Below are positions 4,949 to 39,117 of a stretch of 64,000 nt of DNA, one piece after another; the stretch's first letter is position 1; every line of letters begins with the position of its first letter. Source of the stretch: Rhizobium sp. 007. GTDB lineage: Bacteria > Pseudomonadota > Alphaproteobacteria > Rhizobiales > Rhizobiaceae. Under the pieces are notes generated by a model. The model did not search any database. It was not told the origin of the DNA and saw only the letters and a list, made by a program, of their open reading frames with translations. The position numbers were made by a program, and so were the translations under genes. The stretch spans positions 930,001-994,000 of the forward strand of contig NZ_CP064188.1 of NCBI RefSeq assembly GCF_015353075.1, read 5' to 3'.

Positions 4949-6283
4949 ATGGGTGTAGCAATTCCAGCCGCGCCGGCGCGCGGCAAAGTTCCATTCTACC
5001 GGCATCTCTATGTGCAGGTCGTTTTCGCCATCTGTGCAGGCATGCTGCTCGGGCACTTCTACCCCGAGGTCGGCACGGCGCTGAAACCGCTTGGCGATGC
5101 CTTTATCAAGCTCGTCAAGATGATCATCGCACCGGTCATTTTCCTGACGGTGGCAACCGGTATCGCCGGCATGTCCGATCTGCACAAGGTCGGGCGCGTC
5201 GCCGGCAAGGCGATGATCTACTTCCTCGTCTTTTCGACGCTCGCACTTGCCGTCGGTCTTGTCGTTTCCAACGTCATCCAGCCGGGTGCGGGCATGCATA
5301 TCGATCCGGCCACGCTCGACGCCAAGGCGGTTGCGACCTATGCCGAAAAAGCCCATGACTCGACCATTACCGGCTTCTTGATGAACATCATCCCGACGAC
5401 CATCGTCGGTGCTTTTGCCGACGGCGACATCCTGCAGGTGCTGTTCTTCTCGGTGCTGTTCGGTATTGCGCTCGCCATGGTCGGCGACCGCGGCCGGCCG
5501 GTGGTGGATTTCCTGCAGGCTTTGACGACGCCGATCTTCCGCCTCGTGGCGATCCTGATGAAGGCGGCCCCCATCGGAGCCTTCGGTGCGATGGCCTTTA
5601 CGATCGGCAAATATGGCATCGGTTCGATCGCCAACCTTGCCATGCTCATCGGCACCTTCTATCTGACATCGCTGCTTTTCGTGCTCGTCGTGCTTGGCGG
5701 GGTTGCCCGCTACAACGGCTTCTCGATCCTGGCGCTGATCCGCTACATCAAGGAAGAACTGCTGCTTGTTCTGGGTACGTCGTCGTCGGAAGCAGCCCTT
5801 CCCGGCCTCATGGCGAAGATGGAACAAGCCGGCTGCAAACGCTCCGTCGTCGGGCTGGTGATCCCGACCGGCTATTCCTTCAATCTCGACGGAACCAACA
5901 TCTATATGACGCTTGCAGCCCTGTTCATCGCCCAGGCGACAGACACGCCGCTGTCCTTCGCCGACCAGATCCTGCTCTTGCTGGTCGCCATGCTGAGTTC
6001 GAAGGGTGCTGCAGGCATCACCGGCGCGGGCTTCATCACGCTCGCTGCCACGCTCTCGGTCGTTCCGTCGGTTCCCGTCGCCGGCATGGCGCTCATCCTC
6101 GGCATCGACCGCTTCATGTCGGAATGCCGCGCGTTGACGAATTTCGTCGGAAACGCAGTCGCCACCGTTGTCGTCGCGCGCTGGGAGAACGAACTGGACC
6201 AGACGAAGTTTGCTGCGGCAATGGCCGGTGAGTTGCCGGAGAATGGTGACGTGAGCGTGCCGGCACTGCAGGCTGCCGAATAA
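4949..6283 (+). CDS. dctA: C4-dicarboxylate/cation symporter DctA
   Basis: This is a 444-residue inner-membrane symporter of the dicarboxylate/amino acid:cation family that imports succinate, fumarate and malate, the carbon supply of rhizobia in nodules. The serine-rich re-entrant motif [14 protein letters not shown], the substrate-site sequence [10 protein letters not shown] and the second hairpin [11 protein letters not shown] are all present. I start at ATG 4949 because GGAGG ends five bases before it; the frame also has an ATG at 4937 and a longer form from 4853, which would begin inside the promoter region. Length equals that of known rhizobial DctA. Confidence 0.97.
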
Positions 6284-22388: not shown

Positions 22389-23858
22389 CTATAAGGACGC
22401 AGCGGCCGACAAAGGTGCTGCGTGCACGGCGTGTTGCCGGGCGGCGAAAACGTCACCGACTGCGATCAGGACGGGGTTTTCGTAGCCGATCTCGCTGATG
22501 CCTTCGCCAAGACCTGCAAGGTTCCCGTGCCACTGACGCTGCGTCGTGCGGCTCACGTCGCTCATGATGACGGCTGGCGTTTCGGGCGACAGGCCTTCGG
22601 CGATCAGCCGGTCGGCAATGAGCGGCGCTGTTCTCCCGCCCATATAAAAGACGGTGGTCGTATGCGGATCGGCAGCGGTGGTCCAATCGACATCCATCGG
22701 CAATCCGCCATGGCGGGAATGGCCGGTGATGAAGCGTACAGACTGGGCATGCTCGCGATGGGTCAGCGAAATGCCGAGGCGTGAGGCCATAGCGCTTGCG
22801 GCCGTGATGCCGGGAATGACGTCGACCGGAATGTTTTCGCGATCAAGATGAGCGATCTCTTCGCCGGCGCGGCCGAAGATCATGGGATCGCCGGCCTTGA
22901 GGCGGACGACGCGCTTGCCCGCCTTTGCGAGTTTTACCATCATCGCGTTGATGTCTTCCTGGCGGCAGCTGCTGCGGCCGCCGCGCTTGCCGACCAGCAT
23001 GCGCTTGGCCTCGCGGCGCGCGAGTTCCAGCACCTCGGTGGAAACGAGATCATCGAAAAGGATAACGTCGGCGGCCTGCAGCGCTCGAACCGCCTTCAGC
23101 GTCAGAAGCTCGGCATCGCCAGGGCCCGCGCCGACGAGCGTGACGCGTCCGGTTGTACTTGTTGTGGATTTCAAGCCCCGAGCAGCAAGCAAAAGCTGCG
23201 CCTCGGCCTGGTTGACAGCAGAACCGTCGAAAGCCATGTCGGCGAATTTTTCCCAGAAAAGTCGCCGCGCGGAAGCGGTTTCAAGGAGCCCGTTGACCCT
23301 GCCGCGTATCGACTGGGCAAGTCCAGCCCAGGATTTCAGCGTGCGCGGGAGCAAGGTCTCGATCTTGCGGCGGATGGTCTGGGCAAGAATGGGTGCTGCG
23401 CCATCCGTCGAGATTGCAACAACGACGGGGGAGCGGTTGACGATAGATCCGAACTGGAACTGGCAGAAATCCGGCTTGTCGATGACATTGACCGGAACGC
23501 CCGTCGCGCATGCCGCGTCGAAGAAGCGCCTGGCTTCAAGCTCGTCGTCGCAGTCGGCAATTGCAATGGCAGCGCCGGTCAGACCTTCCATCTGCCAGTG
23601 CCCCGGATGATGGATCAGTCTGGCCGCGGCGTGCTCGAGATTGCGGGCGAGAAGCGCCTTGAAGGTGCCGCTCAGCGTTTCGGCGTAGATTTCGACATGA
23701 GCGCCGCAGGCAGCAAGAAGTTCCGCCTTCCAGGCGCAGGCGTCGGAGCCGCCGGCCACCACGCACCGCTTGCCTTCAAGCGCCCAGAAGACGGGCAGCT
23801 TTGCAAGCGGCTCCATGCGGGCGGGATTGTCATTCCGCGGCTGCTGCAAGACATCCAT
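22389..23858 (-). CDS. cysG: Siroheme synthase CysG (trifunctional)
   Basis: This 489-residue protein makes siroheme, the cofactor of NirB. The N-terminal half is a precorrin-2 dehydrogenase/ferrochelatase (NVIDKPDFCQFQFGSIV, ISTDGAAPILA), although its glycine-rich loop VVAGGSDACAWKAE departs from the usual GGG pattern. The C-terminal half is a uroporphyrinogen-III methyltransferase (VTLVGAGPGDAELLTLKAVR, VVRLKAGDPMIFGRAGEE). Its ATG overlaps the end of nasA by 29 bases. It closes the nitrate operon, so cofactor supply is coexpressed with the reductase. Confidence 0.95.
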   Translation of the reverse strand: MDVLQQPRNDNPARMEPLAKLPVFWALEGKRCVVAGGSDACAWKAELLAACGAHVEIYAETLSGTFKALLARNLEHAAARLIHHPGHWQMEGLTGAAIAIADCDDELEARRFFDAACATGVPVNVIDKPDFCQFQFGSIVNRSPVVVAISTDGAAPILAQTIRRKIETLLPRTLKSWAGLAQSIRGRVNGLLETASARRLFWEKFADMAFDGSAVNQAEAQLLLAARGLKSTTSTTGRVTLVGAGPGDAELLTLKAVRALQAADVILFDDLVSTEVLELARREAKRMLVGKRGGRSSCRQEDINAMMVKLAKAGKRVVRLKAGDPMIFGRAGEEIAHLDRENIPVDVIPGITAASAMASRLGISLTHREHAQSVRFITGHSRHGGLPMDVDWTTAADPHTTTVFYMGGRTAPLIADRLIAEGLSPETPAVIMSDVSRTTQRQWHGNLAGLGEGISEIGYENPVLIAVGDVFAARQHAVHAAPLSAAASL

Positions 23859-26487
23859 CGATGATCCCCTTGATTTCGGCGCGGCACGAGCCGCAGTTGG
23901 TGCCGGCGTTGAGCTCTTTACCGACTGCCTCGACGCTGCGGCAGCCGCCGCGGACCGCCGCTACGATCTGATTGACGCCGACGGCGAAGCAGGAACAGAC
24001 TGTGGCACCTGGGTCCGGCTTGTCAGCGCCCGGCCGGCCGGCGACAAGAGCAAAGCGCTTGCGCAAGTCGCCATGGTCGGCGGCAAGCTGTGAGATCGCC
24101 CAGCTGCGAGCGACGGCGACCGGTTCGCGGGCGAGGAACAGCGCAGCAAGCAGGCGCGTGCCGTCGAAGAAGGCGAGCCGCAGATCGCCGGATTGCTGAT
24201 CCGCGTAGCCGAGCGGCTCGATCTCGGCAGGAATACCAAAGGTGCTGCGGCACCAGCCGCACCAGTCTTCGACCGCGTGGTCGAAGGCGAGTTCCAGTCG
24301 CCAGCCGCCATCTGCTTTCGCCAAGGCCCAATAGGCGGCGCCAAGGTTTTGCGGTTTGCCCGCCGAGACTGCAAAGCCGTAGCGGGCTGCCTTCAATGGC
24401 CGGGCGGCGACGGCGACGTTCTTGGAGGCAGGCTGGCCGGAGAACGGATCGGTGAGCGGGGCAACCACTGCGTCGATGCGAGCCTTGGCGGCAAACTGAT
24501 CGTTCCAGTGCATGGGCACGAAAATGCTGCCGCGGGCCTGGCGTTCGGTGATCAGCGCGCGCACGACGGCCTTTCCCTGCGGGCTTTCAATTTCGACCAG
24601 ACCGGCATTACCGATACCGATTTCCATCGCATCTCGGGGGTGTAGTTCGGCAAAGGGTTCGGCGATATGGGCGGAAAGGCGCGCACTTTTGCCAGTGCGT
24701 GTCATCGTGTGCCACTGGTCGCGGATACGTCCCGTGTTAAGCGTGAAGGGGTAGTCGGCGCTGGTGCGGTCGGATGCGGGCGGTTCGACCGGCACGAAGC
24801 GTGCCTTGCGATCGGGATGAAAAAAGCTGCCCTTCGCAAAGAAGCGGGTCACAGTCCTCTCGTCGCCGACGGGCTGCGGCCACTGAAAGGGTGTCATCGC
24901 GTCGTAGGCAGCTTTCTCGATGCCGGCATAGGCGCCGATGTCGAAATCGCGGTTGCCACTGTTTTCGAAGGCCGAAAGCGCGGCATGCTCATCGAAAATG
25001 TCTGACGGAGAGGCAAAGGCGAACGCATCGGCAAAACCCATGCGGCGTGCGACCTCGGCCAATTGCCACCAATCCGCGCGCGCATCGCCGGGGGCGTCGA
25101 TGAAGGAACGCTGGCGCGAAATGCGGCGTTCGGAATTGGTGACTGTACCGCTCTTTTCGCCCCAGCCAAGGGAAGGCAGCAATACGTGGGCATGGCGGGC
25201 GGTGTCGGTCGTCTTGAGGATATCCGAGACGACGACGAAAGGGCAGGCCTTGATCGCCGTCTCGACGGCATCGGCATCCGGCAGCGAGACCACCGGGTTC
25301 GTCGCCATGATCCAGAGCGCCTTGATGCGGCCGTCGCCGACTGCCTTGAACATGTCGACGGCCTTCAGACCCGGCTTTTCGGCAATCGCCGGCGACTGCC
25401 AGAAGCGTTGCACGCGATCGCGGTCTTGTGCGCTCTCAATCGCCATGTGGGCGGCAAGCATGTTTGCCAAGCCGCCAACCTCACGGCCGCCCATCGCGTT
25501 CGGCTGGCCCGTCAGCGAGAAGGGACCCATGCCCGGCTTGCCGATGCGTCCAGTGGCGAGGTGACAGTTGATGATGGCGTTGACCTTATCGGTCCCTGAC
25601 GAGGATTGGTTGACGCCCTGGCTGTAGCAGGTGACGGCCTTCTCGGTCGCCGCGAAGAGGCGATAGAATTCGCGAAGCTGCATTGCCGGCAAGCCGGTCA
25701 GTTCCAGGACCTCGTTGAAGGAGACACCAGAGGCGGATGCAAAAGCCTCGGCAAAGCCGTTCGTGTGTTCGGCTACATAATTCTGGTCGATGGCATTGGT
25801 TGCGATCAGGTGCTCGAAGAGGCCGAGGAAAAGAGCGACATCGCTGTCTGGCCGGATCGCTAGGTGCAGATCTGCGATGTCGGCAGTCATCGTCCGGCGC
25901 GGATCGATGACGACGACCTTCATGCCGGGACGCGCCGCCTTGGCGGCCGCCAGCCGCTGATAGATGACCGGATGGCACCAGGCGAGGTTGGACCCGGTAA
26001 GGATGACCAGATCGGCCAGTTCCAGATCCTCATAGGTCCCGGGCACGGTATCGGCGCCGAAGGCGCGGCGGTGGCCGGCGACGGAAGATGACATGCACAG
26101 GCGCGAGTTGGTGTCGATGTTGGCCGAGCCGATGAAACCCTTCATCAGCTTGTTGGCGACGTAATAGTCCTCGGTCAGCAGCTGGCCGGAGACATAAAAG
26201 GCGACGGAGTCAGGCCCGTGCTCGGCAATGGCATCCGAAAAGCGCTGCGCCACGAGATCAAGAGCCTCATTCCATCCGGCCCGCCGTCCCGCGATCTCCG
26301 GATGCAATACGCGTCCGTCGAGATCGATCGTTTCGGCGAGCGCCGAGCCCTTCGAGCACAGCCGCCCGAAATTGGCCGGATGGTCCGGGTCGCCCATGAC
26401 GGACACATTGCCGTCATCTGCGATCTTGGCGATCACCCCGCAGCCGACGCCGCAGTAGGGACAGGTTGTCTTGATCTCTTCTGCCAT
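23830..26487 (-). CDS. nasA: Assimilatory nitrate reductase catalytic subunit
   Basis: This 885-residue molybdoenzyme reduces nitrate to nitrite in the cytoplasm. The N-terminal [4Fe-4S] motif is CPYCGVGCG with a fourth Cys in GRLCSKGS. Molybdopterin-guanine-dinucleotide binding domains follow. A C-terminal BFD-like [2Fe-2S] domain (VCSCFAVGVNQI ... TNCGSCRAEI), as in Klebsiella NasA, likely takes electrons from a flavin or NADH partner. Its ATG follows immediately after the nirD TAG stop. No separate NasC-type electron-transfer subunit gene is present, so the reductant is unclear. Confidence 0.95.
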   Translation of the reverse strand: MAEEIKTTCPYCGVGCGVIAKIADDGNVSVMGDPDHPANFGRLCSKGSALAETIDLDGRVLHPEIAGRRAGWNEALDLVAQRFSDAIAEHGPDSVAFYVSGQLLTEDYYVANKLMKGFIGSANIDTNSRLCMSSSVAGHRRAFGADTVPGTYEDLELADLVILTGSNLAWCHPVIYQRLAAAKAARPGMKVVVIDPRRTMTADIADLHLAIRPDSDVALFLGLFEHLIATNAIDQNYVAEHTNGFAEAFASASGVSFNEVLELTGLPAMQLREFYRLFAATEKAVTCYSQGVNQSSSGTDKVNAIINCHLATGRIGKPGMGPFSLTGQPNAMGGREVGGLANMLAAHMAIESAQDRDRVQRFWQSPAIAEKPGLKAVDMFKAVGDGRIKALWIMATNPVVSLPDADAVETAIKACPFVVVSDILKTTDTARHAHVLLPSLGWGEKSGTVTNSERRISRQRSFIDAPGDARADWWQLAEVARRMGFADAFAFASPSDIFDEHAALSAFENSGNRDFDIGAYAGIEKAAYDAMTPFQWPQPVGDERTVTRFFAKGSFFHPDRKARFVPVEPPASDRTSADYPFTLNTGRIRDQWHTMTRTGKSARLSAHIAEPFAELHPRDAMEIGIGNAGLVEIESPQGKAVVRALITERQARGSIFVPMHWNDQFAAKARIDAVVAPLTDPFSGQPASKNVAVAARPLKAARYGFAVSAGKPQNLGAAYWALAKADGGWRLELAFDHAVEDWCGWCRSTFGIPAEIEPLGYADQQSGDLRLAFFDGTRLLAALFLAREPVAVARSWAISQLAADHGDLRKRFALVAGRPGADKPDPGATVCSCFAVGVNQIVAAVRGGCRSVEAVGKELNAGTNCGSCRAEIKGIIDGCLAAAAE

Positions 26488-26817
26488 CTATTCCGCCGCC
26501 ATCATCAAGCTTTCGAGGGCAATGAAGAGCGCGCCGTCCTGGTTGCGGACCGGAATGGTCCGCACCGCGCCCTCATCGGCGCCAAGCGCCTTGCCGGTTT
26601 CGAGCGAGATGACCCAGTTGTGCAGCGGGCAGGTGACCGCCTTGGCATGCACGATACCCTGGCTGAGAGGGCCGCCCTTGTGGGGGCAGTGATCTTCTAT
26701 GGCGAAGACTTCGTTTTCAGCCGTCCGGAAGACGGCGATCTTGCCCTGCGGCGTCTTCACGCAGCGCGCTCCGCGCAGCGGGATGTCGGAGATATCACCG
26801 ATCGCAATCCAGTTCAT
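26488..26817 (-). CDS. nirD: Nitrite reductase small subunit NirD (Rieske-like)
   Basis: This 109-residue protein is the small partner of NirB. The Rieske ligand motifs CPHKGGPLSQG and CPLHNW are complete, so it can bind a [2Fe-2S] cluster, unlike NirD proteins that lost these residues. I start at ATG 26817 with GGAG upstream; the same frame runs open to 27003, but that part overlaps nirB in another register and is not coding. It lies 10 bases after nirB and abuts nasA. Confidence 0.94.
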   Translation of the reverse strand: MNWIAIGDISDIPLRGARCVKTPQGKIAVFRTAENEVFAIEDHCPHKGGPLSQGIVHAKAVTCPLHNWVISLETGKALGADEGAVRTIPVRNQDGALFIALESLMMAAE

Positions 26818-26827
26818 GTTGATCTCC

Positions 26828-30614: not shown

Positions 30615-30681
30615 TAAAACAAAAAGCCGCTGGCCAGGTCGCGCACACACGAATGCGCGGGATATCCTGATCAGCGGCTTT
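30615..30681 (-). terminator. Attenuator in the narK leader
   Basis: On the transcribed (minus) strand AAAGCCGCTG (30681-30672) pairs perfectly with CAGCGGCTTT (30632-30623), followed by a U-rich run TTTTTGTTTT. The long loop has its own nested stem (CGCGCA ... TGCGCG). It lies between the sigma-54 promoter and the narK start, where a terminator makes sense only if it is conditional. NasT-type ANTAR proteins prevent termination at such leaders, and nasT lies next door. Confidence 0.8.
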
Positions 30682-30704
30682 GCCTGAGGCGCCCGTCTTT
30701 GGAC

Positions 30705-30727
30705 GCCGAAACATGCGACCTTTCGGC
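30705..30727 (-). promoter_or_regulatory. Leader hairpin upstream of the narK attenuator
   Basis: On the minus strand GCCGAAA pairs with TTTCGGC across a 9-base loop. It is among the first sequence transcribed from the -24/-12 promoter. It could be part of the NasT-binding element, but the tight hexaloop described for ANTAR targets is not obvious to me. Confidence 0.45.
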
Positions 30728-30741
30728 CTCGTGATTATCAA

Positions 30742-30757
30742 TGCAAGAGGCGTGCCA
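30742..30757 (-). promoter_or_regulatory. Sigma-54 promoter of the narK-nirBD-nasA-cysG operon
   Basis: Read on the minus strand the sequence is TGGCACGCCTCTTGCA, a full -24/-12 match with GG and GC 10 bases apart. Transcription should begin near 30731, giving a leader of about 165 bases. NtrC is the expected activator from what is known of nitrogen control in rhizobia. Confidence 0.9.
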
Positions 30758-30854
30758 ATTCGAAATCTAGGCGAATTTCGTCTTTTCTCTCCGCAAGTCA
30801 GCCTTTTTGGTCAGGATGACTAGGGCGAGACCGCCGGTTCCTTCGGCCAAAAAT

Positions 30855-30867
30855 TATGCAATGCATA
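30855..30867. promoter_or_regulatory. Candidate enhancer palindrome upstream of the narK promoter
   Basis: TATGCA-A-TGCATA is a perfect palindrome about 100 bases upstream of the -24/-12 element, in the position of an NtrC-type enhancer site. The bases only loosely resemble the NtrC consensus, so the protein is uncertain. The rest of the 316-base gap holds only the promoter and leader. Confidence 0.4.
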
Positions 30868-30883
30868 GAAAATAGGCGTCATG

Positions 30884-32098
30884 CTATGCCTGCTTTTGAG
30901 CAGCAATATACGCATCGACGCAATCGGGATCAAAGAGATTGCCGTCGAAAAAGCCATCCGGACCAAGCGTCATCGTGCCGCTGGAGCCAACTGGCGTTTC
31001 CATGCGCAAGGCGCCCTCAACCTTCGAACTTGCAGCCGGCATTGCAACGCCGAGCGCCTTTAGAGCATTGCGGTAGATATCCGGCCGGTAGGTGTTGCCG
31101 GCCACGTTCTGGTGGGCCGCGGTGTGATCGACGTGGCCCCAGCGGACCATCTGCGTGTAGAACCAAAGGGCGTGGCTCTTCCATGGAAACGTCGCCGCCT
31201 TGGCGTGCGGGACGAAGAAGTCGCTGACCGTCTGCGTTGCGTTGCGGCCAACTTTAAGCACGCCGGTGACGGATGGACGCAGCCACTCTGCCGGGCTGTT
31301 GATATAGGCCGGACCCGAAAGCAATAGGGCAAGCTCTTCATGATTGGCGGGGTCGGCGCACCAGACTGAGGCATTGTAAAGCGCTCGCAGGAGGGCCACG
31401 AGTGCGTCAGGATGGCTATCGCCCCAGCGACTGTTCACGCCCAGCACCTTTTCGGGACTGGATTTCCAGATCGCCGCCTTGACGGTTGCAAGGTGCGCGC
31501 CGCGTTTGAGGACGCCGAAGGTATTCCACGGTTCTCCAGCACAATAGCCGTCGATCAGACCGGACCTCAGCGCGTCACCCATATCCTGCGGCGGAAGGGT
31601 CACGATCTCGATCTCGTGGTCTGGGTCGATACCGCTTCCAGAAAGCCAGTAGCGCAATTCGTAGTTATGTCCGGAGTAGGGGTGTACGATACCGAAACGA
31701 AGCCTGTCGCCTGCCCGCTGCGAAATCACTTTTTTCAGTGCCGCACCGCTTGAGCGCGCATCAAGTGCATCGGCTGCGCCATCGTCGGCCATTTCCCGCC
31801 ACAAGGCGCCCGAAACGGTGACGGCATTTCCGCCAAGCCCAAGCGCCATGGGTACGATCATGCGCGGCGCGGGGGCCATGAGACCGAGATTGCAGGCGAT
31901 CGGCATGGGGGCAAGAATATGAGCGACTTCGAAATGGCCGACCGCCAGCCTGTCCCTGATCGTTGCCCAGGATCGCTCCCGCACGAGCGTGAGGGCCACT
32001 TCCTGCGCTTCAGCAAAGCCCTTCTCTTTGGCGACGACGAGCAGCGCGCTGTCGAGAAGCGGAACGAAGCCCGCGGTGATGTCATGCCTGTTCCTCAT
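30884..32098 (-). CDS. nasS: Nitrate sensor NasS, second copy
   Basis: This 404-residue protein resembles nitrate-binding NrtA/CmpA but has no signal peptide, as expected for cytoplasmic NasS. Without nitrate NasS holds NasT inactive; with nitrate it releases it. Family motifs include AHILAPMPIA, YSGHNYELRYWL, IDGYCAGEPWN and FPWKSHALWFYTQMVRWG. Its ATG overlaps the nasT-type stop by four bases. It differs much more from the other NasS copy at 36323-37606 than the two NasT copies differ from each other. It lies just upstream of the narK promoter. Confidence 0.88.
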   Translation of the reverse strand: MRNRHDITAGFVPLLDSALLVVAKEKGFAEAQEVALTLVRERSWATIRDRLAVGHFEVAHILAPMPIACNLGLMAPAPRMIVPMALGLGGNAVTVSGALWREMADDGAADALDARSSGAALKKVISQRAGDRLRFGIVHPYSGHNYELRYWLSGSGIDPDHEIEIVTLPPQDMGDALRSGLIDGYCAGEPWNTFGVLKRGAHLATVKAAIWKSSPEKVLGVNSRWGDSHPDALVALLRALYNASVWCADPANHEELALLLSGPAYINSPAEWLRPSVTGVLKVGRNATQTVSDFFVPHAKAATFPWKSHALWFYTQMVRWGHVDHTAAHQNVAGNTYRPDIYRNALKALGVAMPAASSKVEGALRMETPVGSSGTMTLGPDGFFDGNLFDPDCVDAYIAAQKQA

Positions 32099-32697
32099 AC
32101 GTCCGCTCCAGGATCAAGCAGGTTTGCCGCGGTGACGAGGCTTTGAGCGATCTCGACGACTTTCCTGTTCTGGTTCATAGCCGTGCGCCGCAATAGCGCG
32201 TAAGCTTCCTCTTCCGACAGCCCGCGGGTGCGCATCAGCAACCCCTTGGCGCGATCGATCAGTTTGCGTTTTTCCAACTCGCCGCGAGTTTCTTCCAGCT
32301 CTCGACTCAATCGCGCAAACGCATTGAAACGACTGATCGCCATCTTGAGGATGGGTCGGACCCGTTCCTGCTTCAGGCCATCAACGATGTATGCGGAAAC
32401 CCCTGCCTCGACCGCAGCTTCGATCGAGGCTTCATCGGACTTGTCCACGAACATGGCGATGGGCCTCTTCACCGCACGCGATATCTGGAAGATGCTCTCC
32501 AACATGTCGCGGTTGGGGTTTTCGAGATCGATGACGATCACATCGGGATTGATCTCGGTGATGCGCCTGGCAAGACCATTCATGTCATCGATGATCGTGA
32601 CCCTGTCATAACCGGCCTCGCGCAAACCGTCCTCGATGATGGACGCACGAATGCGGTTCTCATCAATGACCAGAACATTCAGACTGTTAGCTTTCAT
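32095..32697 (-). CDS. nasT: ANTAR antiterminator NasT, second copy
   Basis: This 200-residue protein has a receiver-like domain (VLVIDENRIRASIIEDG, PDVIVIDLENPNRDML) and a C-terminal ANTAR RNA-binding domain (DRAKGLLMRTRGLSEEEAYALLRRTAM). ANTAR proteins bind hairpins in nascent leaders and prevent termination. ATG 32697 (MKANSLNVLVID) is chosen; the frame runs on to 32727 without support. Over half of its residues match the NasT copy at 37647-38234 by eye. It is coupled to the nasS-type gene by an ATGA overlap and follows nrtC after 208 bases. Confidence 0.92.
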   Translation of the reverse strand: MKANSLNVLVIDENRIRASIIEDGLREAGYDRVTIIDDMNGLARRITEINPDVIVIDLENPNRDMLESIFQISRAVKRPIAMFVDKSDEASIEAAVEAGVSAYIVDGLKQERVRPILKMAISRFNAFARLSRELEETRGELEKRKLIDRAKGLLMRTRGLSEEEAYALLRRTAMNQNRKVVEIAQSLVTAANLLDPGADV

Positions 32698-32905
32698 GAG
32701 GCCGCGCCACGGGTTACTGGCATTCATTCGCTACAGGCGCGCCGATGGTGCAGGAGCCAACGGACACGACGCCGCAGATGCGCGAATACAGCCACAAAAT
32801 CAAGCAGTATCTTGGCTGCCTGATCTCATGCTCTGCCCGCACGAACGGGGTCCGTCCCTAGCCGAGTGGTCGAACACGGCACTGCACAGCGGTAATCGTT
32901 GTAAG

Positions 32906-33703
32906 TTACTCCGCGGCTTCAACGAAGCGGTGACGTTCGTAAAGAAACTTCAAAACGGCCTCGCGGCACTTGAGATAAGTGCGGTCCGAAGCGAGTTCGA
33001 TGCGGTTGCGGGGCTTCTCGATCGGCACATCGAGGATTTCACCGATCTTGGCCGCTGGCCCGTTGGTCATCATCACGATGCGGTCAGAGAGCAGCACGGC
33101 CTCGTCGACATCGTGGGTGATCATCACCATCGTGTTGCCGAGACGTGCGTGGATGTCCATCACCGCATCCTGCAGATGGGCACGCGTTAGCGCGTCGAGC
33201 GCACCGAAGGGTTCGTCGAGCAGGAGGATCTTCGGCTCCATCGACAACGCACGGGCGATGCCGACACGCTGCTTCATGCCGCCGGAAATCTCAGAAGGCC
33301 GCTTGTCCTTGGCGTGGGCCATCTGGACGAGATCAAGATTGGCCATGACCCATTCGTGACGCTCCGCCCTGCTCTTTGAGCTGCTGAAGACCTTGGAAAC
33401 GGCCAGGTTGACGTTTTCATAGACGGTGAGCCAGGGAAGCAGGCTGTGGTTTTGGAACACGACGGCGCGTTCGGGACCGGGCGCATTGACTTCCCGGTTT
33501 TCGAGAAGCACTGCACCGGCCGAAACTGGCGTTAAGCCGGCGATCAGGTTCAAAAGCGTGGATTTACCGCAGCCGGAGTGGCCGATGATCGATACGAACT
33601 CACCCTTGGCAATCGTCAGGTTGATGCCCTTCAGCACTTCGGCGCGCGTTCCGGCCCGGTCAAAATGCTTGTCGATATGGTCGAGCTTGAGATAGGCAGT
33701 CAT
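32906..33703 (-). CDS. nrtC: Nitrate ABC transporter ATP-binding protein
   Basis: This 265-residue ATPase of the nitrate/sulfonate/taurine group has Walker [13 protein letters not shown], signature EISGGMKQRVGIARAL, Walker B ILLLDEPFGALD and H-loop VMITHDVDEAVLLSD. ATG 33703 (MTAYLKLDHID) has GAGGAAC upstream; the longer frame to 33910 overlaps the permease gene and is not coding. It lacks the C-terminal NrtA-like regulatory domain of cyanobacterial NrtC and so corresponds to NrtD in layout. Confidence 0.9.
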   Translation of the reverse strand: MTAYLKLDHIDKHFDRAGTRAEVLKGINLTIAKGEFVSIIGHSGCGKSTLLNLIAGLTPVSAGAVLLENREVNAPGPERAVVFQNHSLLPWLTVYENVNLAVSKVFSSSKSRAERHEWVMANLDLVQMAHAKDKRPSEISGGMKQRVGIARALSMEPKILLLDEPFGALDALTRAHLQDAVMDIHARLGNTMVMITHDVDEAVLLSDRIVMMTNGPAAKIGEILDVPIEKPRNRIELASDRTYLKCREAVLKFLYERHRFVEAAE

Positions 33704-33714
33704 GATCGTTCCTC

Positions 33715-34605
33715 TCAGTTGGCCGAAGCGCCGCGGGTGATCAGTCGGCCTGCGGCGGCCACCAGCTTGTCGAGCGCGAAACCGACGACGCCGATATAGG
33801 CCAGGGCGACGATGATGTCTGGCAGGCGCGACGAGTTCCACGCATCCCAGATGAAGAAGCCGATACCGACGCCGCCGGTCAGCATCTCGGCTGCGACGAT
33901 GGCGAGCCACGACAGACCGACGCCGATACGAAGGCCGGTAAAGATGTAGGGCGCAGCCGATGGTAGCATGATCTTGAAGAAGAATTCGAAATGGTTGAGC
34001 CGCAGCACCTGTGCCACGTTGCGATAGTCCTGGGGGATATTGCGCACGCCAACGGCCGTGTTGATGATCACCGGCCAGATGGAGGTGATGAAGATCACGA
34101 AGATTGCTGAAGGATTGGAATCCTGGAAGGCAGCGAGCGACAGCGGCAGCCAGGCAAGTGGCGGGACGGTGCGCAATACCTGAAAGATCGGGTCGAGCCC
34201 GCGCATGGCCCAGACCGATTGGCCAATGACGGCGCCGATGACGACACCCGAGATTGCGGCAAGGCCGAAGCCGTAGGCGACGCGCTGCAGCGAGATGATG
34301 ACGCGCCAGCCAAGCCCGATGTCCTGGGAGCCGTAGTTGAAGAACGGATAAGCGATCAGATCAAAGCTTTCCTGCCAGACCCGGTGCGGAGAGGGCAGTG
34401 AGGCGTCGGGCGACGAACAGAGCACCTGCCAGATGGTCAGAATGATCGTAAGCACGACAAGCGGCGGCACGATGCTGCGCGCCGCCACCATCGCAACGCC
34501 GCGGACATTGATCCGGGGCGCCGGTTGTCTTGCAAGGCGGACGACATTTGCGGCCTTCGGCGCAGTCTTTGCCGGTATGGGTTCTTTCTTTGCCAGGGCG
34601 GACAT
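33715..34605 (-). CDS. nrtB: Nitrate ABC transporter permease
   Basis: This 296-residue inner-membrane permease of the NrtB/SsuC type has an N-terminal cytoplasmic arm rich in Ala and Arg, then six predicted membrane segments. The EAA-like loop reads RNVAQVLRLNHFEFFFKIMLPSA. TGGVGIGFFIWDAWN near the C terminus is typical of nitrate permeases. It lies 59 bases after nrtA and 11 bases before the ATPase gene. Confidence 0.92.
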   Translation of the reverse strand: MSALAKKEPIPAKTAPKAANVVRLARQPAPRINVRGVAMVAARSIVPPLVVLTIILTIWQVLCSSPDASLPSPHRVWQESFDLIAYPFFNYGSQDIGLGWRVIISLQRVAYGFGLAAISGVVIGAVIGQSVWAMRGLDPIFQVLRTVPPLAWLPLSLAAFQDSNPSAIFVIFITSIWPVIINTAVGVRNIPQDYRNVAQVLRLNHFEFFFKIMLPSAAPYIFTGLRIGVGLSWLAIVAAEMLTGGVGIGFFIWDAWNSSRLPDIIVALAYIGVVGFALDKLVAAAGRLITRGASAN

Positions 34606-34664
34606 GAGGCGCTCCTCGTCGTGAACAAAAGGCCGGCGCGCCTGTGACGCGCCGGAGGTGGGGA

Positions 34665-35963
34665 TCAGGATGCGGCCTTGATGGCAAGGCTATCGAGATA
34701 GGCGGACGGATTTTCCGGATCGAAGACCTTGCCGTCGAAGAAGGTTTCCTTGCCCCGGGACGGAGAAGACGGAATGTCGGCGGCGGCGACACCCAGCGCC
34801 TTGGCCGCATCGCGCCAGAGATCCTCCCGGTTGACCTGGTCGACGAGAGCCTTGATGTCGGTGTCAGGTGCGAACTTGCCCCAGCGGACGTTCTCGGCCA
34901 TGAACCAGGTGTCGTGGCTCTTGAAGGGGTAGGAGGCGCCGCCTGCCCAGAATTTCATGTAAAGATCGGTGCCATGGGCGACACGGCCGTTGCCGTAGTT
35001 GATGTCACCCTTGAGGCGGCCGAGGATGTCCTTCGGCGGCACGTTGAACCATTGGCGCTTGCCGAGGATTGTCGCCATCTCCTCCTTGTTGTCCATGCTG
35101 TCGCACCATTGTTGGGCTTCCATCACGGCCATCAGCAGGGCTCTTGTGGCATTCGGGTTCTTCTCGACCCAGTCGGCGCGCATGCCGAGCGCCTTTTCCG
35201 GATGTCCCTTCCAGAGTTCGCCGGTCGTTGCTGCGGTAAAGCCGACGCCCTGATTGACGAGCTGCTCGTTCCACGGCTCGCCGACACAGAAGACGTCCAT
35301 GTTGCCGACCTTCATGTTTGCCACCATCTGCGGCGGCGGCACGACGATGGTCGAGACGTCCTTGTCCGGATCGATGCCGCCGGCGGCAAGCCAGTAGCGG
35401 ATCCAAAGGTCATGGGTGCCCCCCGGGAAGGTCATTGCGGCCTTCACTTCCTTGCCTTCGGCCTTCTTTTTTTCGAAGGCCGCCTTCAGCTTGGATGCGT
35501 CGAGCTGGACGCCGGTATCGGCATATTCCTTGGCGACGGAAATGCCCTGGCTGTCGTAATTCAGGCGGGCGAGCAGGGCCATCGGTACCGGCTGATTGTT
35601 CTGGGTCACCTTGCCCGTATGCATCAGATAGGGCAGCGGCGAAAGGATATGGGCGCCGTCGATACCGTTCGAAGCCCCGCCGAGAACCAGATTGTCGCGT
35701 GTTGCCCCCCAGGAAGCCTGCTTGGCGACCTCGACATCGGGAAGGCCATGTTTTTCGAAAAGCCCCTTCTCCTTGGCGACGATCAACGCGGCAGCGTCGG
35801 TCAGCGCGATGAAGCCGAGTTTGGCGCCCGTGACTTCAGGTGCTGCGGCTGCTGCAAAGGCGCCGGACGGAAAAGCTGTGCGGACTGCGCCGATCAAGGC
35901 AGCCGCGGCGGTCGTTTTCAGGAGGCTTCGGCGGCTCATGCCGGTCGTAAGGATCTTGTTCAT
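34665..35963 (-). CDS. nrtA: Nitrate ABC transporter substrate-binding protein
   Basis: This 432-residue binding protein has a Tat-type signal at its N terminus (MSRRSLLKTTAAAALIG), so it is exported folded. The mature part shares with NasS the motifs AHILSPLPYLMHTGK, FPGGTHDLWIRYWLAAGGID, FCVGEPWN and FKSHDTWFMAENVRWGKF, which line the anion site of NrtA-type proteins. ATG 35963 is preceded by the leader and attenuator; an open frame to 36143 is not coding. It is the first gene of the nrtABC operon. Confidence 0.93.
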   Translation of the reverse strand: MNKILTTGMSRRSLLKTTAAAALIGAVRTAFPSGAFAAAAAPEVTGAKLGFIALTDAAALIVAKEKGLFEKHGLPDVEVAKQASWGATRDNLVLGGASNGIDGAHILSPLPYLMHTGKVTQNNQPVPMALLARLNYDSQGISVAKEYADTGVQLDASKLKAAFEKKKAEGKEVKAAMTFPGGTHDLWIRYWLAAGGIDPDKDVSTIVVPPPQMVANMKVGNMDVFCVGEPWNEQLVNQGVGFTAATTGELWKGHPEKALGMRADWVEKNPNATRALLMAVMEAQQWCDSMDNKEEMATILGKRQWFNVPPKDILGRLKGDINYGNGRVAHGTDLYMKFWAGGASYPFKSHDTWFMAENVRWGKFAPDTDIKALVDQVNREDLWRDAAKALGVAAADIPSSPSRGKETFFDGKVFDPENPSAYLDSLAIKAAS

Positions 35964-36005
35964 GCGCTGGTTCCCCTTGTTGGTCGTCGCAGGAATTTTC
36001 GGAAT

Positions 36006-36059
36006 AAAAAAACGCCGCCCGGAGATTGCGTCTGCGGGAAGGGAGAGTTCCCGGACAGC
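36006..36059 (-). terminator. Attenuator in the nrtA leader
   Basis: On the minus strand GCTGTCCGG (36059-36051) can pair with CCGGGCGGC (36022-36014) using two G-U pairs, and is followed by a run of seven T. The loop contains a nested GGGAA ... TTCCC stem. The design matches the narK leader: sigma-54 promoter, upstream hairpin, terminator with a long structured loop, then the first gene. Confidence 0.75.
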
Positions 36060-36088
36060 AAAGCCCGTGCGACGTCGATGTCTTTTGC

Positions 36089-36107
36089 AAGCGCTGATCG
36101 CGCGCTT
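36089..36107 (-). promoter_or_regulatory. Leader hairpin upstream of the nrtA attenuator
   Basis: AAGCGC and GCGCTT form a 6-base-pair stem with a 7-base loop about 30 bases after the predicted transcription start. It occupies the same place as the hairpin in the narK leader and may take part in antiterminator recognition (inference). Confidence 0.45.
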
Positions 36108-36146
36108 TCTCGCCAAGATCGCCATTGATCCGGGCAAGATCACCCT

Positions 36147-36162
36147 TGCAAGCCGTGTGCCA
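36147..36162 (-). promoter_or_regulatory. Sigma-54 promoter of nrtABC
   Basis: Read on the minus strand the sequence is TGGCACACGGCTTGCA, a full -24/-12 match with correct spacing. Transcription should begin near 36136, leaving a leader of about 173 bases. AT-rich dyads with TATGCATAAT and ATTATGCA lie 60-120 bases upstream and may be enhancer sites. I see no gene in the 359-base gap 35964-36322. Confidence 0.9.
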
Positions 36163-36322
36163 GTTTTTGATGTGAACTATAGATCATTGAAACTAAATCA
36201 AGATCCGCGCTTTAAGCTCATATGCATAATTTTTGAGCTTATGATGAAAATGCTTATATATTATGCAAATGATGTTTCTCATGCGCAGATGGCTGCCAGC
36301 CTTTTGTGCAAAGCAGGAGAAA

Positions 36323-37606
36323 TTAGATTTCGGCCACGTCCGGTGCAAAGGGCAGGGTGCTCCTAACCGTAAATCCGCGGACATACTCCACGAGCCGCGC
36401 CGGATCGAAAATGCGGCCGTCCATGAAGCGGTCGTAGTCGCTGTCGCCTTCGATGCGGATATCGGCGTCCTGAGGCGTGCACGCCTCGCCGAGTGCCGTC
36501 CTGTAAAGGTCGGGGCGATAGGCGGAAGCTGCCGCGCGCGCGCTATTCAGGCTGATTGACGCCTGTCCCCAGCGGACCATCTGGCTATAGATCCACAATG
36601 CCTGGCTCGGCCGCGGGTAGTTTGCAAAGCCGCCATGGAACATGAAGTAATTGTCGATGACGCGGCGGTTGCCCTTGGCGTCCAGGCTGAACTCGCCGGC
36701 AAGCACATATCGGATAATGTCGACGGGTGCCGCAATGTAGCGCTGATCGGCGAGTACCGCGGCCAAGGCATCGTGGTTGCCGGCATGGTCGCACCAGCGC
36801 GCTGCCGCATCGAGCGCCACGATCAGCCGGGAGACCGTTTCCGGATGGCTCTGTGCCCAATCCGGCCGCATGCCGACGACCTTTTCCGGGGCTGACGGCC
36901 AGATGTCCTGTTTTGTCGCAACGATCCGCCCGACGCCGCGCTCAGACGCCACCATGTTCCACGGCGCGCCGACACAGAAGCCGTCGATCGCGCCGGCGGC
37001 CAGAGCGTCGGAGGTGAGCGGCGGGGGGACGACGACGAGCTTCACGTCCTTGTCGGGATCAATGCCGCCTGCGGCCAGCCAGTAGCGGAATTCGTAATTG
37101 TGCGAGGAAAAGGGATAGGTCATCCCGAGTGTCGGCACCGGCTCGCCGGTTAGCCGCATCTGGTTCAGCACCAATGCAAAGGCGCGCGCGCTTTCGAGGG
37201 CGCCGGCTTTCTCGGAAAGACCTGCGGTTTTGCGCATCCGTTCGAAGAGGCGCGTCGAAAGGGTGATCGCGTTGCCGCCGCGCCCGAGCGAAAAGGGTGT
37301 GATGGTCGGCGAGGGGTTCGAGCCCAGTCCAAGCGCTGCCGCAACAGGCATCGGTGAGAGCATATGGGCTATATCGAATTGGCGAAAGGCCAGGCGGTCG
37401 CGAACATTCGCCCATGAAACGTCTCTGACGAGATCGAGGGTCAGGCCCTCCTTCTCGGCAAATCCGAATTCTGCGGCCGCAATCAGCACCGAGGCGTCGA
37501 CCAAGGGAATGAAGCCGGCGCGAAGAACACGCGGGCCTTCGCTGCTGAGCCTTGAAGGCGCTGAGACACGCCCTTGCTGTGTGTCAATTCTCGTCACCGC
37601 ATTCAC
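36323..37606 (-). CDS. nasS: Nitrate sensor NasS, first copy
   Basis: This 427-residue NrtA-like protein has no signal peptide and is therefore cytoplasmic NasS. Motifs include AHMLSPMPVAAALG, FSSHNYEFRYWLAAGGID, IDGFCVGAPWNM and PSQALWIYSQMVRWGQ. No ATG fits the start; GTG 37606 lies nine bases after GGAGG and is the best choice. It follows nasT by 40 bases and precedes the nrtA promoter. The pair at 30884-32697 is a paralogue, so each NasS may answer to a different ligand level. Confidence 0.9.
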   Translation of the reverse strand: MNAVTRIDTQQGRVSAPSRLSSEGPRVLRAGFIPLVDASVLIAAAEFGFAEKEGLTLDLVRDVSWANVRDRLAFRQFDIAHMLSPMPVAAALGLGSNPSPTITPFSLGRGGNAITLSTRLFERMRKTAGLSEKAGALESARAFALVLNQMRLTGEPVPTLGMTYPFSSHNYEFRYWLAAGGIDPDKDVKLVVVPPPLTSDALAAGAIDGFCVGAPWNMVASERGVGRIVATKQDIWPSAPEKVVGMRPDWAQSHPETVSRLIVALDAAARWCDHAGNHDALAAVLADQRYIAAPVDIIRYVLAGEFSLDAKGNRRVIDNYFMFHGGFANYPRPSQALWIYSQMVRWGQASISLNSARAAASAYRPDLYRTALGEACTPQDADIRIEGDSDYDRFMDGRIFDPARLVEYVRGFTVRSTLPFAPDVAEI

Positions 37607-37646
37607 TCCGCAGTCCTCCGGACAATCGATTGGCCGTGGCGGCGGG

Positions 37647-38234
37647 TCACATCAGCAACCCTGCGGCCGTCACGACGCTTTGTGCGATTTCGGACATCTT
37701 CTTCTTCTCGTTCATCGCCGTCTGGCGCAGCAGGGCGAATGCCTGTTCCTCCGAAAGGCCGCGCATCTTCATCAAGATGCCTTTGGCCCGCTCGACGACC
37801 TTGCGCTCTTCGAGCGCCGACTTTGCATCGGCGAGCTCCCGCTGCAGGCGGCTGAAGGCATTGAACCGGCTGACGGCCATATCGAGGATGGGTTTGACCC
37901 GCTCCTTCTTCAGCCCGTCGACGATATAGGCAGAGACGCCGGCATCAACGGCTGCTTCGATGGAAGCCGTATCGGATCGATCGACAAACATCGCGATCGG
38001 CCGACTGATCGTTCGTGTCAGCTGGAATAGGTGCTCCATCATGTCGCGGTTCGGGTTCTCGATGTCGATGATGATAACGTCCGGTTTCAGCGTTTCGATG
38101 ATGCGCGCGACGCCCTGGACCTCGTGAATGACGGTGACGCGCGTGTGGCCGGCCTCCTGCAACCCCTCCTCGATGATCGAGGCGCGGATCGCATTTTCAT
38201 CTATGACCAGAATTGTCAGGTCGAAACGGCTCAT
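37647..38234 (-). CDS. nasT: ANTAR antiterminator NasT, first copy
   Basis: This 195-residue protein has a receiver-like domain (ILVIDENAIRASIIEEG; PDVIIIDIENPNRDMM) and a C-terminal ANTAR domain (ERAKGILMKMRGLSEEQAFALLRQTAM). It should bind the nrtA and narK leaders to prevent termination when NasS detects nitrate. ATG 38234 (MSRFDLTI) is preferred; a GTG at 38252 is possible. It heads the nitrate locus. Confidence 0.93.
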   Translation of the reverse strand: MSRFDLTILVIDENAIRASIIEEGLQEAGHTRVTVIHEVQGVARIIETLKPDVIIIDIENPNRDMMEHLFQLTRTISRPIAMFVDRSDTASIEAAVDAGVSAYIVDGLKKERVKPILDMAVSRFNAFSRLQRELADAKSALEERKVVERAKGILMKMRGLSEEQAFALLRQTAMNEKKKMSEIAQSVVTAAGLLM

Positions 38235-38313: not shown

Positions 38314-39117
38314 ATGCGCTTTCTAGAAATCCGCAACCTTCTTCAGGAGCTTCTCAATCATGCGCTCACCTATGGTTATGCCGGTCATCAGATGATCGAG
38401 CAGGCGCGGGCTATGGTGAAGAATGGCGATCTCGGCGAGATTCGCATCGTCAATCTGCAATTTGCCCATGGTTTTCACAGTGCGCCGGTCGAGGATCAGA
38501 ACCCTTCCACGCGTTGGCGCGTCGATCCGACAACCGCAGGCCCGAGCTATGTGCTCGGCGATGTTGGAACGCACCCGCTCTATATCTCGGAAGTGATCCT
38601 GCCGCATTTGACGATCAAGCAGTTGATGTGCGCCCGTCAGAGCTTTGTCAAAAGCCGCGCGCCCCTTGAAGACAATGCCGTTACGCTGATGGAATACGAC
38701 AACGGTGCTATCGCCACCGTCTGGTCGAGCGCCGTCAATGCGGGCTCCATGCACGGACAGAAGGTGCGCATCGTCGGCGAAAAGGCGAGCATCGAATGGT
38801 GGGACGAGCGGCCGAACCAGCTTTCCTACGAGGTCCAGGGAGAGCCGGCGCGCATTTTGGAACGTGGCATGGGCTATCTACCCCGGAGCAAGGATCGACG
38901 ACTGCATCGGTGGCGGCCATCCAGAAGGCATCTTTGAGGCTGGGCAAACCTCTACCGGCGCTTCGGATTCGCCATTAACAAGGAGCACGGTCTTGCACCG
39001 GAGGGCATCGAAGGCCTGGCGTTTCCGGGGATCGATGCGGGGCTCGAAGGCGTGCGCTGGGTGGAAAATTGCGTGCGCTCTGCCGATGCCGGCGGCGTGT
39101 GGGTAGACTATCTGTAA
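38314..39117 (+). pseudogene. Truncated, frameshifted Gfo/Idh/MocA oxidoreductase
   Basis: The reading frame begins abruptly inside the protein: YGYAGHQMIEQARAMVKNGD and NLQFAHGFHS are from the region after the NAD-binding Rossmann fold, which is missing. Around 38880 the sense shifts frame (GARIDDCIGGGHPEGIFEAG), and around 38938 it shifts again (WANLYRRFGFAIN, then GLEGVRWVENCVRSADAGGVWVDYL and TAA at 39115). Three frames together rebuild the C-terminal half of a sugar dehydrogenase. With no cofactor domain it cannot work as such. Its N-terminal end abuts the nasT upstream region, suggesting a rearrangement there. Confidence 0.88.

What the first reader, a model, noticed from the sequence alone, without database searches (positions are those of the whole stretch)
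30615..38234. Two nasT-nasS pairs bracket nrtABC in one nitrate locus
Minus-strand order is nasT-nasS, nrtA-B-C, nasT-nasS, narK-nirB-nirD-nasA-cysG. One NasT/NasS pair is normal. Here both NasT copies keep full receiver-like and ANTAR domains and are strongly alike, while the NasS sensors have diverged much more. This suggests a duplicated antitermination switch with two sensors, possibly different in affinity or ligand, each placed just upstream of one of the two attenuated operons.
Basis: partly seen in the sequence, partly recalled or inferred. Interest (0 to 1): 0.72.

Follow-up and report, generated by a model that had tools for sequence, protein, structure and literature searches.

The report
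Two nitrate switches fused in one locus
A soil Rhizobium carries, side by side in one nitrate-use locus, two complete nitrate-sensing RNA switches that its relatives mostly carry one at a time; they come from two old lineages rather than from a recent duplication, and together they offer a natural test of how such switches choose their RNA targets.

Summary
On the minus strand, nasT_A-nasS_A-nrtABC-nasT_B-nasS_B-narK-nirB-nirD-nasA-cysG are intact in a Rhizobium mongolense-type genome. The reading as a duplicated switch is not supported: NasT and NasS each fall into two old clades, A and B, and holding the composite genomes' NasS_A and NasS_B together as one clade is rejected. Of 148 genus genomes, 141 have NasT; 7 carry both types in one locus, 2 on separate contigs. 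The locus most likely joins an A head (nasTS_A-nrtABC) to a B operon (nasTS_B-narK-nirBD-nasA).

Each operon has a sigma-54-type promoter match and a leader with two A1/G4 hexaloop hairpins, the second overlapping a terminator. Hairpin P1A is in 38 of 39 A-class and 0 of 87 B-class leaders. The genome has one clear leader of each class. All four regulators are under purifying selection. In nine A-only genomes narK keeps a full B-type leader, so NasT_A probably reads both: I predict overlapping, asymmetric channels. Sensor contact residues match, so different ligands are not indicated. New variant of a known kind.

The parts
37647..38234 (-). nasT_A (REC + ANTAR antiterminator, class A)
   Evidence: Pfam PF00072 + PF03861; class A clade; dN/dS 0.02
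36323..37606 (-). nasS_A (NMT1_2 nitrate/nitrite sensor, class A)
   Evidence: PF13379; class A clade; dN/dS 0.12
36148..36162 (-). sigma-54-type promoter match TGGCAC-N5-TTGC before nrtA
   Evidence: pattern in 27 of 27 loci labelled A with nrtA; position checked; consensus recalled
36005..36132 (-). class A leader: P1A hexaloop 36116-36131, P2A hexaloop 36071-36082, terminator about 36006-36075 overlapping P2A
   Evidence: model R2 118.7 bits
34665..35963 (-). nrtA, nitrate-binding protein of the ABC importer (twin-arginine-like N-terminus)
   Evidence: PF13379; best PDB match 2g29 NrtA
33715..34605 (-). nrtB permease
   Evidence: TIGR01183 above cut-off
32906..33703 (-). nrtC ATPase (start chosen inside ORF 32906-33910)
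   Evidence: TIGR01184 above cut-off
32728..32905 (-). junction between the A head and the B operon; keeps a box GCTTGATTTTG..CGCGCAT seen upstream of nasT_B in some B-only genomes; no terminator match
32095..32727 (-). nasT_B (REC + ANTAR, class B)
   Evidence: dN/dS 0.05
30884..32098 (-). nasS_B (NMT1_2 sensor, class B), overlapping nasT_B by 4 bases
   Evidence: dN/dS 0.12
30743..30757 (-). sigma-54-type promoter match TGGCAC-N5-TTGC before narK
   Evidence: pattern in 57 of 67 B-narK loci; position checked; consensus recalled
30619..30729 (-). class B leader: P0 30717-30728, P1B hexaloop 30688-30707, P2B hexaloop 30673-30684, terminator about 30620-30679 overlapping P2B
   Evidence: model R1 109.6 bits
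29296..30567 (-). narK nitrate/nitrite MFS transporter
   Evidence: best NCBIfam hit TIGR00886, 222 bits, below its cut-off 312; PF07690
26828..29278 (-). nirB (named by length, order and homology to the other loci; no family scan run on it)
26488..26817 (-). nirD (start chosen inside ORF 26488-27003)
   Evidence: TIGR02378 above cut-off
23830..26487 (-). nasA nitrate reductase (named by homology and order; no family scan run on it)
22389..23858 (-). cysG siroheme synthase
   Evidence: PF00590, PF13241, PF10414, PF14824 above cut-off

Best explanation
The locus joins two alternative nitrate-assimilation units. Unit A is nasT_A-nasS_A, a sigma-54-type promoter, a class A attenuator leader and nrtABC. 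Unit B is nasT_B-nasS_B, a sigma-54-type promoter, a class B leader and narK-nirBD-nasA-cysG. Shown by sequence: the two classes, their separate ancestry, both leaders, and conservation of the parts in seven genomes. Inferred from studied NasS-NasT systems: without nitrate or nitrite each NasS holds its NasT; the ligand frees NasT, which binds hexaloop hairpins on the nascent leader, so the overlapping terminator does not form and transcription goes on into the transporter operon. Inferred further: each pair mainly serves the leader next to it, but the channels are not sealed. NasT_A probably also reads the narK leader; the reverse has no natural precedent among the loci seen. The result would be two nitrate-gated transporters with overlapping control rather than one copy plus a spare.
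For: Intact genes and domains. Two clades for NasT and NasS (AU p 1e-9, lnL 579 lower if held together). 41 of 41 A-class NasT sit with NasS_A. Seven genomes with both in one locus. Leader hairpins and terminators conserved, with compensatory changes in P1A, the mid hairpin, P1B and P2B. P1A in 38/39 A-class and 0/87 B-class leaders, the latter including 20 nrtA leaders from Mesorhizobium and Chelatococcus, so leader class follows the NasT class and not the transporter. One clear leader per class in the genome. A/B class-determining residues include the equivalents of EutV RNA contacts Y164 and R175. Purifying selection on all four regulators. Nine A-only genomes whose narK has a full B-type leader. 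NasS-NasT dissociation and leader binding in Paracoccus (PMC3795266, passages); NasT-dependent narK expression in Bradyrhizobium (PMC4724949, passages).
Against: No expression or binding data for this organism. NasT-leader class agreement is essentially one old split, so it may be shared descent rather than specificity. The 10-residue class signature was chosen after the tree was seen and its enrichment p-values are post hoc; 2 hits among 11 RNA contacts gives p 0.10. Loop position 5 of P1B, which looked like adaptation in A-narK hybrids (G in 6 of 9 against 1 of 52 rhizobial B-narK leaders), is also G in 20 of 28 B-class leaders from outside Rhizobiaceae. The class A leader as a whole folds only slightly better than shuffles (z -1.3, 23 of 200 shuffles as good). 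P2A and the A terminator give no covariation support, and the B terminator's both-sided changes are within shuffles (59 of 500; one of its 14 pairs fails in 22 of 25 rows). The donor of nirBD is not resolved (NirB tree).
Confidence: 0.75

Rival explanations
1. Tandem duplication within the locus followed by divergence of the sensors: one pair kept the old role, the other shifted in affinity or ligand.
For: Adjacent, same strand, same gene order; NasT 67% and NasS 40% identical. At like NasT identity (67-72%) eight same-class B pairs have NasS at 48-64%, so the sensors of the two classes do differ more.
Against: The copies are not sisters: NasT and NasS of the composite genomes split into two clades filled by single-pair genomes (one-clade test on NasS rejected, p 1e-9). 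Cross-class identity is the same in genomes with only one pair. Nitrate contacts are the same in both NasS.
Confidence: 0.04
2. One functional switch plus a hitch-hiker: the second pair came along with its transporter and is redundant, because either NasT can read both leaders.
For: NasT_A genomes keep a B-type narK leader (9 of 10 A-narK loci). A single NasT serves targets far away in Bradyrhizobium (PMC4724949, passages). The REC parts are 68% identical, so cross-pairing with the other NasS is possible.
Against: Both pairs are intact in all seven composite genomes and evolve under dN/dS 0.02-0.12 between two of them. Class-specific leaders have not converged in the composites.
Confidence: 0.25
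3. Fully insulated channels: NasT_A reads only the nrtA leader and NasT_B only the narK leader.
For: P1A is confined to A-class leaders and P2A to them too; the models hardly see each other's leader in the window (R2 on the narK leader 13.8 bits, E 0.35; R1 no match on the nrtA leader). Class differences sit at or beside RNA-contact residues.
Against: A-narK hybrids place a B-type leader under NasT_A alone, although all ten keep P1A as well. Loops of B-class leaders outside Rhizobiaceae overlap with A-class loops.
Confidence: 0.2

Closest known systems
NasS-NasT of Paracoccus denitrificans
   Same: RNA-binding NasT held by a nitrate/nitrite sensor NasS, with a leader RNA target (PMC3795266, abstract and passages).
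   Different: One pair and one leader in the passages seen; here two pairs of different class in one locus.
NasS-NasT of Bradyrhizobium japonicum / diazoefficiens
   Same: NasT needed for narK operon expression; NasS inhibits it without nitrate (PMC4724949, abstract and passages).
   Different: [quoted passage not shown] nrtABC there lies just upstream of the narK operon, with no nasTS of its own mentioned in the passages seen.
EutV of Enterococcus faecalis with the eut leaders
   Same: Dual hexaloop with A1 and G4, second hairpin overlapping the terminator; RNA-contact residues can be mapped (PMC3369931 and PMC8934654, passages).
   Different: Activated by phosphorylation rather than release from a ligand-binding protein; a 20-base insert between hairpins abolishes EutV action, yet the A-class leader has a mid hairpin between P1A and P2A.
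Mesorhizobium and Chelatococcus nasTS-nrtABC-narK operons
   Same: Both transporters near one nasTS; B-type leader hairpins in most.
   Different: One switch for both transporters instead of two.

Membership tests
NasS-NasT two-component antitermination system | NasT with receiver-like and ANTAR domains | tested here: met
   both NasT
NasS-NasT two-component antitermination system | NasS: NrtA-like (NMT1_2) protein encoded next to nasT | tested here: met
   both pairs; B genes overlap by 4 bases, A genes lie 40 bases apart
NasS-NasT two-component antitermination system | NasS cytosolic (no export signal) | tested here: inconclusive
   neither NasS shows the twin-arginine-like N-terminus seen in NrtA (sequence); no signal predictor was run
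NasS-NasT two-component antitermination system | nitrate/nitrite pocket | tested here: inconclusive
   equivalents of NrtA W102, H196, G240, K269 kept in both NasS; the Q155 stretch reads GGNA in both (hand count); no model or binding
NasS-NasT two-component antitermination system | target leader with hexaloop hairpins overlapping a terminator | tested here: met
   both operons
NasS-NasT two-component antitermination system | nitrate/nitrite-dependent dissociation of NasS from NasT | not testable with these tools
   shown for Paracoccus (PMC3795266, passages)
Recent tandem duplication | the two copies are each other's closest relatives | tested here: not met
   NasT tree; NasS tree and AU test
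Dual-hexaloop ANTAR RNA motif | A at loop position 1 and G at position 4 in two hairpins | tested here: met
   window: AATGGC and ATCGAC (nrtA leader); AAAGAC and AAAGCC (narK leader)

The most novel reading that the evidence does not exclude
NasT has split into two RNA 'dialects', A and B, marked in the protein at the base-stacking and stem-contact positions (F/K against Y/N) and in the leader by P1A-P2A against P1B-P2B. The R. mongolense-R. sullae group holds both in one cell as two largely separate nitrate channels, one for a high-affinity importer and one for the MFS transporter plus reductases, with one-way cross-talk from NasT_A to the B leader.
Probability: 0.3. Interest if true: 0.6.

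Novelty: new variant of a known kind. Interest (0 to 1): 0.42.

Why it matters
How ANTAR proteins tell one leader RNA from another seems open; Ramesh et al. speculated that specificity lies in the less conserved residues of the motif (PMC3369931, passage). Here two natural NasT classes with two leader classes sit in the same cell, beside relatives with A alone, B alone, and hybrid leaders. That makes specificity, cross-talk and sensor-antiterminator pairing directly testable with deletions and reporters in harmless soil bacteria.

Tried and rejected
Tandem duplication: rejected by the trees and the one-clade test on NasS. Sensor divergence as a sign of new function after duplication: cross-class identities are the same in single-pair genomes. 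A different ligand: same contact residues by alignment. More double-carriers in the family sample: G097's two hits are pieces of one gene at contig ends and G121's second copy is 51% identical and elsewhere; two more genomes in the class sample have two copies at distant places (G758, G844). An Rfam match for the leaders: only P11 at 21 bits (E 0.73; cut-off 70), taken as chance. The GGCC hairpin (P0) as first hexaloop of the narK leader: wrong; the A1/G4 hexaloops are P1B and P2B, so the columns 'P1B' and 'P2B' mean P0 and P1B in this report. One search used motifs that mixed P1A with P1B and was replaced. Loop position 5 as a mark of adaptation to NasT_A: undone by leaders from outside Rhizobiaceae. 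Flanking synteny to locate the junction: matches beyond the operon are few even among composites, uninformative. A nirB remnant in the junction: no NirB match there; DNA similarity of the junction is confined to the composite loci apart from short matches. Covariation of P1A in the A-narK hybrids: 8 sequences, not above shuffles.

Whole-genome searches score a capped list of first-look candidates (8 per genome, 150 of about 5100), so weak extra copies or leaders could be missed.
Full report
WHAT IS THERE. The window is position 930001-994000 of contig C2 (2.28 Mb) of a 7.6 Mb genome. Its NasT_B is identical to that of R. mongolense USDA 1844. On the minus strand stand nasT_A, nasS_A, nrtA, nrtB, nrtC, nasT_B, nasS_B, narK, nirB, nirD, nasA, cysG, all uninterrupted. 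Both NasT have receiver and ANTAR domains over the Pfam cut-offs and both NasS are NMT1_2 proteins. NarK's best NCBIfam model is the nitrate/nitrite MFS subfamily, though below its cut-off. nirB and nasA are named from homology and order; I ran no family scan on them. The two NasT are the only ANTAR proteins found in the genome.

HOW COMMON. In the genus, 141 of 148 genomes have NasT at E <= 1e-40 and 9 have two. In 7 of the 9 (G000, G411, G414, G431, G442, G523, G524) the two lie about 5.5 kb apart with the whole composite order and no inner stops in the 11 genes matched. G509 has nasTS_A-nrtABC on one contig, with no nirB match after it, and nasTS_B-narK-nirBD-nasA on another. G452's B copy lies on a 4.7 kb contig and may be contamination. 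In an even sample of the family 213 of 394 genomes have NasT at E <= 1e-30 and 3 have two hits: G000, one gene split by contig ends and one genome with a distant second copy. In the class sample 56 of 385 have NasT and 3 have two: G000 and two genomes with copies at distant places. The samples overlap. Of the 80 named loci kept, 3 show the composite.

TWO CLASSES, NOT A DUPLICATION. Across the loci the commonest layouts have one nasTS, then nrtABC or narK, then nirBD-nasA; 8 Mesorhizobium and Chelatococcus loci have both transporters under one nasTS. In the NasT tree the composite's two copies fall in different clades, each filled with single-pair genomes (quick tree, support 84 and 97 for the two composite groups, 94 and 91 for the two large clades). 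The NasS tree agrees, and forcing the 14 composite NasS into one clade is rejected (lnL 579 lower, p-AU 1e-9). The same test was not run on NasT. Pairs are not mixed: 41 of 41 A-class NasT sit with NasS_A; of 101 B-class NasT, 99 sit with NasS_B and 2 distant ones (L209, L211) are nearer NasS_A by score. Compared with the 142 pairs, the window's pairs show cross-class identity of 63-82% for NasT and 38-48% for NasS, so 67% and 40% are the class difference and not a sign of change after a duplication. Within class B, eight pairs with NasT at 67-72% have NasS at 48-64%, so the sensors of the two classes do differ more than NasT alone would suggest.

HOW IT WAS JOINED. The 3' part has the gene order of B-only operons (nasTS_B-narK-nirBD-nasA). 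Composite NasS_B groups with two B-narK loci (97) and composite NasA with the B-narK loci L014 and L016 (91), but the surrounding NasA set (96) also holds four A-type loci, and the NirB tree does not decide. In the 20 A-nrt loci with nirB printed, nrtC lies under 30 bases from nirB; in the composites a gap of 139-214 bases leads from the nrtC match to the nasT_B match. The gap contains a promoter-like box that is also clear in at least 4 of the 9 B-only upstream regions printed (L022, L024, L161, L183). The scan found no terminator match in the gap, so read-through from the nrt operon into nasT_B is possible; that is inference. The simplest history is an A head joined to an intact B operon, kept through the split of the R. 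mongolense and R. sullae groups. dN/dS between two members (G000 and G523): NasT_A 0.02, NasS_A 0.12, NasT_B 0.05, NasS_B 0.12.

LEADERS. A sigma-54-type match (TGG[CT]A[CT]-N5-TTGC; consensus recalled) stands in 27 of 27 A-nrtA leaders, 10 of 10 A-narK, 57 of 67 B-narK and 0 of 20 B-nrtA leaders at this spacing, and in 2 of 2 A-clade leaders labelled otherwise. The nrtA leader has P1A (loop AATGGC), a mid hairpin and P2A (loop ATCGAC) whose 3' side overlaps the 5' arm of a terminator ending in seven T. The narK leader has P0 (GGCC stem), P1B (loop AAAGAC) and P2B (loop AAAGCC), the last overlapping a 14-position terminator stem. Pairing holds in 98% of cells for P0+P1B+P2B (25 leaders; 3 pairs with changes on both sides, reached in 4 of 500 shuffles), 91% for the B terminator (both-sided changes within shuffles; one pair fails in 22 of 25), 95% for P1A+mid+P2A (22 leaders; 11 cells changed on both sides, 0 of 500 shuffles; P2A itself never varies) and 100% for the A terminator, which hardly varies. 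The narK leader folds far better than shuffles (z -4.2), the nrtA leader only slightly (z -1.3). Whole-genome searches with models of each class find one clear leader each: narK 109.6 bits (plus its own reverse strand at 31.8 and one match at E 0.76) and nrtA 118.7 bits (plus one at E 0.85). The models were built with the window's own leaders among the rows, so those scores are partly by construction.

LEADER CLASS FOLLOWS NasT CLASS. P1A is in 38 of 39 A-class leaders (10/10 before narK, 28/29 before nrtA) and 0 of 87 B-class leaders, which include 20 nrtA leaders from Mesorhizobium and Chelatococcus. P2A is in 29 of 29 A-nrtA leaders, 1 of 10 A-narK and 0 of 87 B-class. P1B is in 84 of 87 B-class, 9 of 10 A-narK and 1 of 29 A-nrtA leaders (column P2B; the one, L210, looks like chance). 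P2B is in 85 of 87 B-class, 9 of 10 A-narK and 0 of 29 A-nrtA. Ten NasT positions separate the classes at the thresholds; seven lie in the ANTAR domain, including the equivalent of EutV Y164, which stacks on G4 (F in 38 of 40 A, Y in 88 of 88 B), and of EutV R175 (K in 39 of 40 A, N in 88 of 88 B) (mapped by alignment and spacing). The enrichment tests (p 0.0075 for ANTAR, 0.0009 for the loop, 0.10 for contacts) are post hoc. As the classes are two clades, this agreement counts as about one event.

A NATURAL CROSS-TALK TEST. In ten A-narK loci narK lies behind nasTS_A. Nine have a complete B-type leader (89-120 bits) downstream of a retained P1A. Their genomes show one NasT in the genus search, and over the ten A-narK loci NasT keeps the A-class F in ten of ten and the A-class K in nine of ten. 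So NasT_A must either work at B-type hairpins or leave narK unregulated. The tenth, L205, keeps the whole A leader (120.7 bits) and the first codons of nrtA fused to the end of a narK leader, which I read as a deletion scar. NarK of these loci nests among B-narK proteins in two places, nine loci in one and L205 apart. None of the 87 B-class leaders has P1A or P2A. From this I predict one-way cross-talk, with P1A perhaps helping NasT_A. A possible sign of adaptation, G at P1B loop position 5 in 6 of 9 hybrids against 1 of 52 rhizobial B-narK leaders, fails because 20 of 28 B-class leaders from outside Rhizobiaceae have it too.

SENSORS. The nitrate contacts of NrtA are W102, Q155, H196, G240 and K269 (PMC13204499, passage). 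Counting by hand along the 2g29 alignment and the pairwise alignments, both NasS keep W, H, G and K and share GGNA where NrtA has the Q stretch. First-shell residues therefore give no reason to expect different ligands; affinity is open.

WHAT IS KNOWN. In Paracoccus NasS-NasT comes apart with nitrate or nitrite and NasT binds the nasA leader (PMC3795266, abstract and passages). In Bradyrhizobium NasT is needed for narK expression from about 2 Mb away (PMC4724949, abstract and passages). For S. meliloti one homologue each of NasS and NasT is reported (PMC6616083, passage). My searches for a double nasTS (listings) showed no title or abstract opening that reports two pairs in one locus; most subscription papers are not held, and I did not read those papers whole.

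VERDICT. A real, conserved and uncommon composite of two known units: a new variant of a known kind, most useful as a natural system for ANTAR-RNA specificity.

Noticed in passing
window 38314-38937 (+): Next to nasT_A lies a stretch matching only the C-terminal domain of Gfo/Idh/MocA oxidoreductases (207-aa ORF; no family match in the two neighbouring plus-strand ORFs tested), probably a decayed gene.
   Followed up: partly
L205 (G047:C45), about 5054-5390: A nasTS_A-narK locus keeps the full nrtA leader and the first codons of nrtA fused to the end of a narK leader: probably a deletion scar of an ancestor with nrtABC and narK.
   Followed up: partly
   Followed up: no
window 34633-34655 (-): A terminator-like 10-pair stem with T-rich tail between nrtA and nrtB, which could lower nrtBC relative to nrtA (matches of this kind are no more frequent than in shuffles).
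   Followed up: no
L160 (G509:C33): A free-standing nasTS_A-nrtABC unit in a genome whose B operon is on another contig: a second way of holding both classes.
   Followed up: partly
L199, L201, L212, L213, L216, L217: Loci with nasTS followed by a distant NrtA/NasS-like protein instead of the nrtA or narK used here; their leaders were only glanced at and not analysed.
   Followed up: no
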